Below are positions 19,105 to 24,487 of a DNA stretch of 31,271 nt, piece by piece. Source of the stretch: a virus. The stretch is from positions 1 to 31,271 of IMG/VR virus record IMGVR_UViG_3300031669_000155; one strand, given 5' to 3'. Position 1 is the stretch's first letter. Every line of letters begins with the position of its first letter. The translations under genes were made by a program, and so were the position numbers. The notes under the pieces were generated by a model. That model was not told the DNA's origin, made no database searches, and saw nothing but the letters and a program-made list of their open reading frames with translations.

Positions 19105-19136
19105 AGCCCGGTTGCCTGCGCGCCGGGCTAATTTTA
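19105..19136 (+). terminator. Terminator of rightward tail/lysis transcript
   Basis: A 7-bp stem AGCCCGG/CCGGGCT (19105-19129) with an 11-nt loop is followed by AATTTTATT. Immediately before it is an 8-bp hairpin CTGCAAGC/GCTTGCAG (19084-19104). It sits between the endolysin and the convergent pentapeptide gene. Confidence 0.6.
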
Positions 19137-19709
19137 TTGTATATAATTCCCATTAATTTCATCCATTTTTTTAAATATATTCTCTTTATGCTCATTCCAC
19201 CAATCTAAAGCATCGCTTGACATTTCAGCTATTTCTTCATCAGTAAAATTGCGCCATTTTTTATTTTCATGAAATTCGCAACCTATTTTTGTCCCATTCA
19301 GATGAATATTTGCGGTATATTTCTCTGTTTGATAAATTCTAATGTTTTTCGGTAAAATAGCCGCTTCTAAATACGCCCCGCTAAAATCCGCCGCGCATAA
19401 ATACGCCCCGCTAAAATCCGCGCAATATAAATTAGCCAGCCTGAAACAAACCACGCGCAAATCGGCCCCGCATAAATACGCCCCGCTAAACTCAGCCTCA
19501 CTAAAATCCGCTCCGCATAAATCCGCCCCGCGCAAATTAGCCCTGGTTAAATTCGCCCCCATTAAATTCGCCCGGCACAAATCAGCACCGCGCAAATCGG
19601 CCCCGGTTAAATCCGCCCCGCGCAAATCAGCCATTTCCCCCTCTGCCCCCTCGCTTATGTACCACATGTAGTGTTGTGCCAATATCACGTCCAATTTTTC
19701 TTTAAACAT
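19134..19709 (-). CDS. Pentapeptide-repeat protein
   Basis: Residues about 27-115 of this 191-aa protein are A(D/N)LxG pentapeptide repeats (GADLTGADLRGADLCRANLM and on), about 17 units, which fold as a right-handed quadrilateral beta-helix. A short helical N-terminus (FKEKLDVILAQHYMWYI) and a 75-residue helical C-terminus (NKKWRNFTDEEIAEMSSDAL) flank them. Some members mimic DNA and block gyrase (Qnr, MfpA); the negative surface here fits but proves nothing. GAAGGGG lies before the ATG. It is the last gene of the repeat-protein operon that starts at 21272. Cys replaces the usual residue in many repeats (DLCGAD, YLCAAD), echoing the Cys-rich neighbours. Confidence 0.85.
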   Translation of the reverse strand: MFKEKLDVILAQHYMWYISEGAEGEMADLRGADLTGADLRGADLCRANLMGANLTRANLRGADLCGADFSEAEFSGAYLCGADLRVVCFRLANLYCADFSGAYLCAADFSGAYLEAAILPKNIRIYQTEKYTANIHLNGTKIGCEFHENKKWRNFTDEEIAEMSSDALDWWNEHKENIFKKMDEINGNYIQ

Positions 19710-19723
19710 TTTATTCCCCTTCG

Positions 19724-19786
19724 CTAATTAGCTCTTCCATCAACAACTGGTAAATCTTCAAACTCAGTTTGCGTGTATATTTTCAT
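19724..19786 (-). pseudogene. Truncated third copy of the hexapeptide-repeat gene
   Basis: A 20-codon ORF starts by TAATG overlap at the end of the upstream paralogue and reads MKIYTQTEFEDLPVVDGR before a TAG. It matches the first 18 residues of both CSFGE paralogues (MKKYTQTEFDALPVIDGR) and then stops. The pentapeptide gene begins 14 nt later. It looks like a third tandem unit whose repeat body was lost or replaced, though it could act as a short leader peptide. Confidence 0.7.
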
Positions 19787-20412
19787 TATTTTACCTCAAT
19801 TTTATTACTAATAATTTCAGCCGGCTGTGAAGTTACGCAATCTGCGCCGAACGTACAGCCGCTATTAAAATGACAATGCTCGCCAAAGCCGCAATCATCG
19901 CCAAAGCCGCAATCATCGCCAAAGCTGCACTGCTCTCCAAAGCTGCAACATTCGCCAAAGCTGCAATCATCGCCAAAGCTGCAACATTCGCCAAAGTCAC
20001 AATTCTCGCCAAAGCTGCAACGCTTGCCAAAGCTGCAATCATCGCCAAAGCTGCAATCATCGCCAAAGCTGCAAAACTTGCCAAAGCTGCAAATATCCCC
20101 AAAGCTACAAAGCTCGCCAAAGCTGCAACATTCGCCAAAGCTACAAAGCTCGCCAAAGCTACAATGCTCGCCAAAATTACACTTCTCGCCAAAGCTGCAC
20201 CATTCGCCAAAGCTGCACCATTCGTCAAAGCTGCACCATTCGCCAAAGCTGCAACGCTCTCCAAAGCTGCAACGCTCGCCAAAGTCACAATGCTCGCCAA
20301 AATTACACTTCTCGCCAAAACTTCTTATTACGCTATAATCGCCTGTTGGGCATTGTTTTCTTCCCTCGACAAATGGTAAAGCATCAAACTCAATTTGCGT
20401 GTATTTCTTCAT
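19786..20412 (-). CDS. CSFGEx hexapeptide-repeat protein, short paralogue
   Basis: This 208-aa protein has a 30-residue head (KKYTQIEFDALPFVEGRKQC). About 26 hexapeptides of the form C-S/N-F-G-E/D-x follow (residues about 31-187), then a tail ending IISNKIEVK. The spacing Phe-Gly-x-x-Cys-x matches the hexapeptide pattern [LIV]-G-x-x-[STAV]-x of left-handed beta-helices, with Phe in the core and a Cys at each i+4 position. This would give three Cys ladders along the helix faces. I know of no function. Cytoplasmic, with no signal peptide. The start overlaps the stop of its longer paralogue (TAATG), so the two are coupled. Confidence 0.85.
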   Translation of the reverse strand: MKKYTQIEFDALPFVEGRKQCPTGDYSVIRSFGEKCNFGEHCDFGERCSFGERCSFGEWCSFDEWCSFGEWCSFGEKCNFGEHCSFGELCSFGECCSFGELCSFGDICSFGKFCSFGDDCSFGDDCSFGKRCSFGENCDFGECCSFGDDCSFGECCSFGEQCSFGDDCGFGDDCGFGEHCHFNSGCTFGADCVTSQPAEIISNKIEVK

Positions 20413-21185
20413 TATTTTATCTCAATTTTATTACTAATAATTTGAGCAGGCTTTGAAGCTACGCAATTTGCGTCAAACTTACAGCAGCTATTAAAATAGC
20501 AATATAATCCAAAGCTACACTTCTCGCCAAAGCGGCACTTCTTGCCAAAGCTGCAATACTCACCAAAGCTACACTTCTCGCCAAAGCTACAATGCTCTCC
20601 AAAGCTACAACGCTTGCCAAAGCTACACTTCTCGCCAAAGCTACACTTCTCGCCAAAATTACAATGCTCGCCAAAGCTACACTTCTCGCCAAAGCTGCAA
20701 CATTCGCCAAAGCTACAAAGCTCGCCAAAGCGGCAATACTCACCAAAGCTACACTTCTCGCCAAAATTACAATGCCCGCCAAAGCTGCAACATTCGCCAA
20801 AGCTGCAATTCTCTCCAGAGCTACAATCATCGCCAAAGCTGCAAAGCTTGCCAAAGCTACAACATTCGCCAAAGCTACACTTCTCTCCAAAGCTGCACCA
20901 TTCGCCAAAGCTGCACCATTCGCCAAAGCTGCACCATTCGCCAAAGCTGCACTGCTCTCCAAAATTACAATGCTCGCCAAAATTACACTTCTCGCCAAAG
21001 CTGCACCATTCGCCAAAGCTGCACCATTCGCCAAAGCTGCACCATTCGCCAAAGCTGCAAATATCCCCAAAGCTACAAGACTTGCCAAAGCTGCAACGCT
21101 TGCCAAAGCTGCAACATTCGCCAAAGCTGCAACGCTCGCCGAAACTGCACCATCCACCAAAGCTGCAATACCCGCCAAAACTTCT
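19855..21185 (-). repeat. 18-bp tandem repeats encoding the CSFGEx units
   Basis: Two runs (about 19860-20325 and 20500-21185) of an 18-bp unit, seen on the plus strand as ccaaagctgcaccattcg and close variants. Some neighbouring units are identical over 54 bp, as in the runs of GEW units near 20890-20950 and 21000-21055. This points to recent slippage or unequal crossing-over. Confidence 0.9.
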
Positions 21186-21272
21186 TATTAAGCTATAATC
21201 GCCTGTTGGGCATTGTTTTCTTCCATCAATAACCGGTAAAGCATCAAACTCAGTCTGAGTGTATTTCTTCAT
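20412..21272 (-). CDS. CSFGEx hexapeptide-repeat protein, long paralogue
   Basis: This 286-aa protein is first in the repeat-protein operon. It has the same head as its neighbour (KKYTQTEFDALPVIDGRKQC) and about 39 hexapeptides of the form C-S-F-G-E-x (residues about 31-265). Its tail (CVASKPAQIISNKIEIK) is also shared. The x position alternates among W, K, R, H, C, L and Y while C, F and G are nearly fixed. This is expected if C, F and G build a left-handed beta-helix core and x is exposed. GAGGAG lies before the ATG and a promoter lies at 21309-21337. Function unknown; candidates are host-enzyme inhibitor, metal or redox binding, or virion decoration. Confidence 0.85.
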   Translation of the reverse strand: MKKYTQTEFDALPVIDGRKQCPTGDYSLIRSFGGYCSFGGWCSFGERCSFGECCSFGKRCSFGKSCSFGDICSFGEWCSFGEWCSFGEWCSFGEKCNFGEHCNFGEQCSFGEWCSFGEWCSFGEWCSFGEKCSFGECCSFGKLCSFGDDCSSGENCSFGECCSFGGHCNFGEKCSFGEYCRFGELCSFGECCSFGEKCSFGEHCNFGEKCSFGEKCSFGKRCSFGEHCSFGEKCSFGEYCSFGKKCRFGEKCSFGLYCYFNSCCKFDANCVASKPAQIISNKIEIK

Positions 21273-21389: not shown

Positions 21390-21800
21390 ATGATTGGAGA
21401 CGCGCTAAAATTAATAACCACAGCTATAGACAAGATTTTCCCCGACAAAATTGAGGCGGAAAAGGCTAAAATAAAATTGCTTGAGCTTGAGCAAGCGGGG
21501 GAATTAAAAGAATTGGATGGCGCATACGGTGCAATTATCGCAGAGGCAAAAAGCACGGATAAATGGACATCACGCGCACGCCCTTCGTTTCTATATGTAA
21601 TGTATATCATGATTATCGCCGCAATTCCTATGGGGCTTTTATACGCCTACAGTCCGCAAACCGCTGAACATATAGCCCTTGGGATGAAAGAGTGGCTGGG
21701 GGCAATTCCTAACGCTCTGTGGAGTTTGTTCGGCGTTGGTTATGTTGGATATTCAGCGTCTCGTTCGTATGATAAGAGTAAAATCTTAAAGGATAAATAG
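21390..21800 (+). CDS. 3TM holin (gene-transfer-agent holin family)
   Basis: This 136-aa protein matches the GTA_holin_3TM family. An N-terminal amphipathic charged region (DKIFPDKIEAEKAKIKLLEL) is followed by KWTSRARPSFLYVMYIMIIA (family signature, first strong membrane segment about residues 66-87). A C-terminal membrane segment with GVGYVGYSASRSYDK closes it. Holins form membrane pores that release endolysin; the likely partner is the protein at 18497. The start lacks a ribosome-binding site. It is an isolated rightward gene between two leftward operons. Confidence 0.88.
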   Translation: MIGDALKLITTAIDKIFPDKIEAEKAKIKLLELEQAGELKELDGAYGAIIAEAKSTDKWTSRARPSFLYVMYIMIIAAIPMGLLYAYSPQTAEHIALGMKEWLGAIPNALWSLFGVGYVGYSASRSYDKSKILKDK

Positions 21801-22873: not shown

Positions 22874-22921
22874 CTACTCACTCAAAGCGTCTGCCAATGC
22901 TTTTTTAACATTTAATTTCAT
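22874..22921 (-). CDS. Micro-ORF after the recombinase gene
   Basis: A 15-codon ORF (MKLNVKKALADALSE) starts by ATGA overlap with the stop of the recombinase-like gene and ends in TAG. It may be the stub of a truncated gene or a coupling peptide. There is no independent evidence of expression. Confidence 0.3.
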   Translation of the reverse strand: MKLNVKKALADALSE

Positions 22922-23904
22922 AATGTTTTATCATTATCAAGTTCTGCCCTTTTTATTTCTTGAAACTTCCAATTTTCCATTATCTTGAGTAATTTACTTT
23001 CTTGTCCTCCAAACTCCTTTTCGTTTTCTTCCCACAAATCAGAAAATAAAGTGTGTTTTACTGGCTCTACTTTATCGTGATAATCACGAATATATAAAGC
23101 ACTCCCTGTATATTCTCCATTTGAATTTCTATCGCCAAATTGTTTCAGTGTTTTTAAATCCCCTTCCCATTCGCCTTTTGGATTTTTCCACGCAATAAGT
23201 CTTTTACTCCGTTTAGAAGCAGTTACTTCAACACTCCTGCCAGCATAAATTACAACCTTATCGTATTCTTGAATAAATTGTTTTCCATTTTTCAAAATTT
23301 TATCTTGTCTTGGAAAAATACGGACACGATAATCATATCCATTTTTGCTCAATATATTTTTAATTTTATTTCCAAAGTTATTCATAATATCTTCGGCTAA
23401 TTCCTCTTCATACTTCTTTTCTTTAATTTCCACTATCTCAACAATAATCTCTAAATTCCTAAAAATTGCGTCCAAGTATTCATATCCAAATCTTGCCAGC
23501 CTATCTTTATATTCGATTAAAATCCTCTCAACTTTTCCCTCGAAACACATCTTAATCAACTTATGTATTCCTTTTCGTTTTTCATTTATTCCGCTTGCTA
23601 TTTCGTCTATCATCAAATACTTGTGTCCCTTTTCTTCGGCGTGTTTTCTCAATCTGTCTTTTTGTCTTTCAAGGTTTTCTTTCTGTTTGGCGGTAGAACA
23701 TCTGGCGTAAATTACGGTTAGCCGTTCTTGCTTTTCTTTCTTAACTCCCATATAAGCGTCAAGATCATATTCTCTAAATCGTCTATGCTCACCGCTTGTT
23801 TTGAAAGAATTTAGTTTGCCGTTATTCGCTAATGTCTTTAACGAATTTATACTTATGCCGAGATATTTACTTGCTTCTGTTATTTTTAGTATGCGATTAG
23901 TCAT
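22918..23904 (-). CDS. IS607-like serine recombinase with foreign C-terminus
   Basis: The first ~190 residues of this 328-aa protein are an IS607-type TnpA. There is a MerR-like helix-turn-helix (LKITEASKYLGISINSLKTL, TSGEHRRFREYDLDAYMG). A serine resolvase domain follows, with the nucleophile in YARCSTAKQKENLERQ (Ser70) and the KDRLARFGYEYL motif. IS607 TnpA normally ends about 20 residues after an EEELVEDLI-like helix. Here, after EEELAEDI, an unrelated ~135-residue domain begins (MNNFGNKIKNILSKNGYDY; WKNPKGEWEGDLKTLKQF), perhaps a host gene fused in frame. ATG 23904 overlaps the endonuclease stop by 8 nt. No TnpB gene is adjacent. Confidence 0.8.
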   Translation of the reverse strand: MTNRILKITEASKYLGISINSLKTLANNGKLNSFKTSGEHRRFREYDLDAYMGVKKEKQERLTVIYARCSTAKQKENLERQKDRLRKHAEEKGHKYLMIDEIASGINEKRKGIHKLIKMCFEGKVERILIEYKDRLARFGYEYLDAIFRNLEIIVEIVEIKEKKYEEELAEDIMNNFGNKIKNILSKNGYDYRVRIFPRQDKILKNGKQFIQEYDKVVIYAGRSVEVTASKRSKRLIAWKNPKGEWEGDLKTLKQFGDRNSNGEYTGSALYIRDYHDKVEPVKHTLFSDLWEENEKEFGGQESKLLKIMENWKFQEIKRAELDNDKTL

Positions 23905-24487
23905 AATCTTTAATCCTAATAAATTCACAATGTAATTCTGTTTTAATAAGTTTTTCCCTGTAAATATCTCTTTCTGTATTTTTAGGCTTTTCATCAATTT
24001 CTATCGCTATTTTTATTTCTGGAATATATCCATCAAGAAAATACCCCAAACATTCATATTGTCTTACAATTTTTATGCCCATTTTTTGTTCAATAGCATC
24101 TAAAATCTTTTTTTCATTTCTACCAATACGAGGGCATATAATATCGCAAATCTTTTTAGCATATTCGAAAGAGGATTTTCTCATTTTTCCCTTTGTTTCT
24201 ATTGAAGGGCTTGGTCTTTTCTTCCCTTGCCAGTATTTTATAGGATTGCGTAATTTAGCCTGTTTCATTTTTTCTTTTGTCTCTTCTGAAAAAGGACTAC
24301 GCTTTTTACCCTTTCTAATACTACTTAATTTATCTTTTGTTTTTTGACTTACAGTTCTGCCTTTCGCCCAAGTATTTATACCTTTCATTGAAATATGAAG
24401 CTTGGCCTTATGTTCTTTAGATAAACTACGCCCTTTCATTGCGTTGCTAATTTTATTCTTATGTGATTTGGATAATTTTCTGCTCAT
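23897..24487 (-). CDS. NUMOD3 / Vsr-like homing endonuclease
   Basis: The first ~100 residues of this 196-aa protein are repeats of the NUMOD3 DNA-binding motif (SKSHKNKISNAMKGRSLSKE, SQKTKDKLSSIRKGKK, SEETKEKMKQAKLR). This module is found in homing endonucleases. The last ~75 residues (EKKILDAIEQKMGIKIVRQY, GYFLDGYIPEIKIAIEIDEK, RDIYREKLIKTELHCEFIRI) match the DUF559/Vsr-like (EDxHD) nuclease fold, with acidic residues in the D-x-Y-x-P...EIDE strands. Such enzymes cut target genes to spread their own locus. Starts by ATGA overlap with a micro-ORF and is coupled to the recombinase downstream. Strong A+T bias suggests foreign origin. Confidence 0.82.
   Translation of the reverse strand: MSRKLSKSHKNKISNAMKGRSLSKEHKAKLHISMKGINTWAKGRTVSQKTKDKLSSIRKGKKRSPFSEETKEKMKQAKLRNPIKYWQGKKRPSPSIETKGKMRKSSFEYAKKICDIICPRIGRNEKKILDAIEQKMGIKIVRQYECLGYFLDGYIPEIKIAIEIDEKPKNTERDIYREKLIKTELHCEFIRIKDYD

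What the first reader, a model, noticed from the sequence alone, without database searches (positions are those of the whole stretch)
19786..21272. Twin proteins built of CSFGEx hexapeptides, possibly a Cys-laddered left-handed beta-helix
Two adjacent genes encode about 26 and 39 hexapeptides of the form Cys-Ser-Phe-Gly-Glu-x. The Phe-Gly-x-x-Cys-x spacing fits the hexapeptide rule of left-handed beta-helices, with Phe in place of the usual Leu/Ile/Val and Cys at the small-residue position. One 18-residue turn would then hold three Cys, giving three continuous Cys columns, while residue x (W, K, R, H, L) is exposed and variable. With dozens of Cys and no signal peptide, metal wires, redox storage or a mimic surface are possible. 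I know of no described function.
Basis: partly seen in the sequence, partly recalled or inferred. Interest (0 to 1): 0.85.

Follow-up and report, generated by a model that had tools for sequence, protein, structure and literature searches.

The report
Phage Cys-Phe hexapeptide rod proteins

Summary
Minus-strand genes 20412-21272 (286 aa, 46 Cys) and 19786-20412 (208 aa, 31 Cys) are arrays of 38 and 26 Cys-x-Phe hexapeptides behind a conserved N-cap (YTQxEFDALP..CPTGDYSxIxSFG). They are tandem duplicates, with a third truncated cap downstream. The family spans about 60 loci in phage contigs and bacterial genomes from several phyla. No Pfam, PHROG or NCBIfam model found here describes the cap-plus-array family. 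Codon comparison shows purifying selection on Cys and Phe, with position 6 essentially free. Sequence evidence points to the hexapeptide (left-handed) beta-solenoid: Pfam Hexapep above its cut-off, PDB sequence hits mostly LpxA/LpxD-like. Both AlphaFold2 models, however, resemble right-handed solenoids, and AF2 is unreliable on such repeats, so handedness is open. The Cys ladder as wire or redox store is not supported: replacements are mostly small residues, and the family's commonest C-terminal domain also caps YdcK-type and pentapeptide solenoids without Cys columns. Best explanation: a cytosolic, non-enzymatic, length-tolerant rod that binds a partner or presents its end domain, usually encoded near phage replication/recombination genes. 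The target is unknown.

The parts
20412..21272 (-). Gene 1: 286-aa cap + CSFGEx array protein, 46 Cys
21174..21272 (-). Conserved N-cap of gene 1 (residues 1-33, YTQxEFDALP..CPTGDYSxIRSFG)
   Evidence: alignment A1 of 12 sequences
20463..21167 (-). CSFGEx hexapeptide array of gene 1 (residues 36-270)
19786..20412 (-). Gene 2: 208-aa tandem paralogue, 31 Cys; its start overlaps the stop of gene 1
19837..20307 (-). CSFGEx hexapeptide array of gene 2 (residues 36-192)
19724..19786 (-). Third, truncated copy: N-cap only (MKIYTQTEFEDLPVVDGRAN-stop), start overlapping the stop of gene 2
19134..19709 (-). Pentapeptide-repeat (right-handed solenoid class) protein directly downstream; neighbour, not a member
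   Evidence: Pfam PF00805 8e-32
21390..21800 (+). GTA-type 3TM holin, divergent neighbour; context only
   Evidence: PF11351 6e-24

Best explanation
A phage accessory protein that folds into a capped beta-solenoid rod. Shown: a conserved N-cap; arrays of 6 to 43 hexapeptides with selected Cys and Phe and free positions 5-6; exchangeable C-terminal domains in relatives; array length that changes between near-identical phages; frequent location among phage replication/recombination and regulatory genes. Inferred: Phe and Cys pack the core, most likely as a hexapeptide (LpxA-type) solenoid; the rod is cytosolic and non-enzymatic and works by stoichiometric binding. The exposed corner residues (positions 5-6) offer a repeated, quickly changing surface, and the C-domain, where present, gives the attachment. 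The window's two proteins have no such C-domain and would act through the rod alone. The target is probably a host or rival-element protein, but this is not known.
For: Codon test: pN at Cys 0-0.15 and at Phe 0-0.04, with synonymous change near saturation in most arrays, against pN 0.52-0.69 at position 6. Hexapep above cut-off and PDB sequence hits dominated by LpxA/LpxD-like left-handed helices. Repeat number differs in near-identical contigs: L004/L009 by 5 repeats, L007/L059 by 15, L044/L046 by 5. Array lengths are even mod 3 (18/18/17) and positions 5-6 show no coil-length peak in autocorrelation, so length and register look unconstrained. The same ~65-aa C-domain (predicted strands plus two helices, pLDDT about 90-97) sits on CSFGEx, YdcK-type and pentapeptide rods. 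Sipho_Gp157 lies downstream of both CSFGEx (L022/L073, L081) and YdcK-type (L085, L087, L095) rods. Neighbours include ERF, dUTPase, SSB, SbcC, DNA polymerase and repressors.
Against: No target, expression or phenotype data. The neighbour survey uses mechanical ORF calls and has no matched control. In the window itself the genes lie beside a holin, not in the replication block. W at position 6 is only 1.46 times what base composition predicts, so selection for binding residues is weak evidence. Cys is kept at 91%, stricter than mere small-residue packing would need. AF2 models do not show the left-handed fold.
Confidence: 0.42

Rival explanations
1. Cys-ladder function: the stacked thiols bind metal or store/relay redox equivalents.
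For: Cys 91% at position 1 across 710 units; in L030 no non-synonymous Cys change in 40 units while position 6 is saturated.
Against: Replacements are mainly small residues, Ser and Gly first; L099 has runs of Ala at that position; the same C-domain and, in some phages, the same genomic slot are served by rods without Cys columns; His is rare.
Confidence: 0.12
2. DNA-mimic solenoid, like Qnr/MfpA pentapeptide proteins, inhibiting a DNA-binding host enzyme.
For: Window 208-aa protein has net charge -24; pentapeptide-repeat gene next door; AF2 model of L022 resembles MfpA weakly (Z 4.8).
Against: Net charge runs from -24 to +18 across the family, so a negative surface is not conserved.
Confidence: 0.15
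3. Inert spacer or scaffold: the rod only sets the distance between cap and C-domain, or oligomerises like bactofilin.
For: Arrays of 6-43 repeats with no preferred register; exchangeable C-domains and repeat chemistry.
Against: Window proteins have no C-domain to hold; a cap at one end and a C-domain at the other would hinder end-to-end polymerisation.
Confidence: 0.2
4. Non-functional repeat expansion or DNA-level element (iterons) that happens to be open.
For: 18-bp tandem array; frequent copy-number change.
Against: Same protein consensus written with different codons in different phages (Ser as AGC, TCC, TCA, TCG) and strong purifying selection on Cys/Phe.
Confidence: 0.03

Closest known systems
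Bacterial transferase hexapeptide / left-handed beta-helix (LpxA, LpxD, GlmU, dynactin p25/p27)
   Same: Six-residue period, bulky residue then Gly, small residue four later; Pfam Hexapep above cut-off; divergent members match LpxA by sequence
   Different: Phe and Cys replace Ile/Leu/Val and Ser/Thr/Ala almost throughout; no strict PROSITE-type match in any of 51 ORFs; no adjoining enzyme domain recognised
YdcK-type solenoid (PF18836; PDB 2F9C/2PIG; phrog_7964)
   Same: Phage hexapeptide rod; same ~65-aa C-domain (phrog_20532) and same position near Gp157 in some phages
   Different: GNAxVx repeats and a different N-cap; no Cys columns
Pentapeptide-repeat proteins (Qnr, MfpA, phage L orf232)
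   Same: Small-x-bulky core pattern; found in phages; repeat-number change (phage L against ST64T, PMC8022706); L074/L093 share the C-domain
   Different: Period five, not six

Membership tests
Hexapeptide repeat / left-handed beta-helix | Tandem hexapeptides scoring above the Pfam PF00132 gathering cut-off | tested here: met
   29.4 and 35.8 bits against 27; L069 58.5 bits
Hexapeptide repeat / left-handed beta-helix | Classical consensus [LIV]-[GAED]-x2-[STAV]-x in the strict PROSITE-type pattern (pattern from memory) | tested here: not met
   0 of 51 ORFs match; 50 of 51 match once Phe and Cys are allowed
Hexapeptide repeat / left-handed beta-helix | Left-handed triangular coil of 18 residues | tested here: inconclusive
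   PDB sequence hits dominated by LbH proteins, but AF2 models match right-handed solenoids and AF2 is unreliable on such repeats; autocorrelation silent
Hexapeptide acyltransferase enzymes | Catalytic His, CoA site and trimer | not tested
   No enzyme-specific domain recognised; activity not assessed
Nab2-type CCCH zinc finger (PF14608) | C-x-C-x-C-x3-H metal ligands | tested here: not met
   Pfam scores 39 and 58 bits, but the ligand pattern is absent from both window proteins: false positive from spaced Cys
Pentapeptide-repeat (Rfr) proteins | Five-residue period | tested here: not met
   Lag-5 identity 0.03-0.04, lag-6 0.55-0.61; no PF00805 hit
YdcK-type solenoid | PF18836 repeats and its N-cap | tested here: not met
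   No PF18836 hit for the window proteins; L088 does hit

The most novel reading that the evidence does not exclude
An undescribed phage system of interchangeable solenoid rods: one C-terminal domain used with several chemically different repeat arrays, CSFGEx being a Cys-Phe-cored type whose stacked thiols have a real chemical role, under rapid length and surface change.
Probability: 0.12. Interest if true: 0.82.

Novelty: new variant of a known kind. Interest (0 to 1): 0.52.

Why it matters
It defines a phage protein family that current libraries miss or mislabel (Pfam reports a CCCH zinc finger). It shows that phages put the same small domain on chemically different beta-solenoids, which makes a testable question of what these rods bind. 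A near-pure Cys/Phe core would also be a useful test case for solenoid design and for structure-prediction error on repeats.

Tried and rejected
Plasmid tblastn gave 921 low-identity records, several of the listed ones labelled replication initiation protein; taken as repeat/composition matches, not relatives, and not followed further. RiPP precursor: NCBIfam HxsA4 hits stay below cut-off; neighbours were not searched specifically for maturases. DNA mimicry as a family trait: charge not conserved. Type 1 and type 2 C-domains as homologues: hhalign E 0.01, probability 4%, inconclusive; likewise the window's pentapeptide C-terminus. Coil length from autocorrelation: no signal at 3 or 4 repeats. 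Foldseek for the window model found no match under E 0.001 in PDB; no LbH entry appears among the listed rows, which does not exclude that fold. Close relatives of the window's pentapeptide gene: none found in IMG/VR. Literature: no paper found on this repeat.

Full report
Observation. The window is an IMG/VR virus record. On its minus strand lie two genes, 20412-21272 and 19786-20412, whose products are almost wholly made of C-x-F-G-x-x hexapeptides: 38 and 26 of them, 46 and 31 Cys. Lag-6 identity of 0.61 and 0.55 is far above shuffles (at most 0.17). The pair is a tandem duplication. A third cap, cut off after 20 codons, follows at 19724-19786, and then a pentapeptide-repeat gene. The holin at 21390-21800 is divergent. 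Elsewhere the contig carries baseplate, primase, helicase, exonuclease, ssDNA-binding protein and DNA polymerase A genes.

Family. Scans of IMG/VR and of GTDB genome contigs gave about 60 loci with the same cap, MKxYTQxEFDALPxxxGxxxCPTGDYSxIxSFG, followed by CSFGEx arrays; some loci are the same contig fetched twice. Genome hits carry titles from Clostridia, Alphaproteobacteria, Bacteroidota, Melainabacteria, Zixibacteria and Phycisphaerae. In one sampled class it is rare: 2 of 291 genomes. No Pfam, PHROG or NCBIfam model found here covers cap plus array. The best Pfam hit, a Nab2-type zinc finger, is a false positive of regularly spaced Cys.

Anatomy. Over 710 units, position 1 is Cys 91%, position 3 Phe 96%, position 4 Gly 88%; position 2 is mostly Ser, 5 mostly Glu/Lys, and 6 very mixed with Gly, Arg and Trp leading. 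Relatives add C-terminal domains of several kinds; the window proteins end in a 16-residue tail. The commonest domain (type 1) is predicted as strands plus two helices. In IMG/VR it also sits on YdcK-type GNAxVx rods, pentapeptide rods and a DCSxLR repeat. Sipho_Gp157 lies downstream of this domain in both CSFGEx and YdcK-type elements. Cultured phages with the type 1 domain include Ruminococcus phage phiRM10, beside Gam-like and Rad52 genes, and Mannheimia phage 587AP2, beside RecT and exonuclease.

Selection. Different phages write the same consensus with different codons. Within arrays Cys and Phe codons change synonymously but hardly otherwise, whereas position 6 is saturated with replacements. 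So the protein, and Cys and Phe in it, are selected. Array length is free: near-identical contigs differ by 5 or 15 repeats, and lengths are even mod 3. A phage pentapeptide gene in the early left operon likewise differs by one repeat between phage L and ST64T (PMC8022706).

Fold. Sequence says hexapeptide solenoid: Hexapep above cut-off, and the intermediate members L069 and L077, with Ile/Leu/Val at the Phe position in part of their repeats, match LpxA/LpxD and, for L069, dynactin. AF2 says solenoid too (mean pLDDT 68, high at both ends; 90), but its models resemble right-handed helices: tailspikes and pertactin, Z about 15, and SV2C/MfpA, Z about 5. AF2 is known to give confident but unrealistic solenoids for repeats (PMC11795689). 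A solenoid is likely; handedness is open, with the sequence evidence favouring left-handed.

Mechanism. I favour a cytosolic, non-enzymatic binding rod (0.42). The Cys columns most likely pack the core: replacements are mostly small residues, Ala runs occur in L099, and rods without Cys columns share the same C-domain. The strictness of Cys is nevertheless unusual, and I keep a thiol role at about 0.12. Family-wide DNA mimicry is disfavoured because net charge runs from -24 to +18.

Limits. Gene calls around loci were mechanical; neighbour counts lack a matched control and include duplicates such as L022/L073. The repeat-unit statistics depend on a simple register-finding script. No expression, target or structure was available.

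Noticed in passing
L039:4700-5032, L049:865-1221, L061:4103-4486: Phage gene near the CSFGEx gene encoding a Cys-every-third-residue array (..GCVDCIGCIDCAGC..) behind a conserved head MRYVSSVSPKGNxSWS; another Cys-repeat class of unknown function (L039 matches phrog_15341).
   Followed up: partly
L009:6016-6723: SNGVNx repeats followed by a zinc-ribbon-like end, two genes downstream of a CSFGEx gene.
   Followed up: no
L035:1081-1701: Protein with an NCxDC-type repeat tail in a phage with a CSFGEx gene.
   Followed up: no
L024:6001-6700 (also L084): CSFGEx gene of Alistipes split over two frames; a one-frame homologue exists in L089.
   Followed up: partly
L092:2677-2874: Second N-cap copy directly downstream of a full CSFGEx gene, as in the window.
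   Followed up: no
window 22918-23997: Resolvase-type serine recombinase with an HTH domain (phrog_6620 transposase).
   Followed up: no
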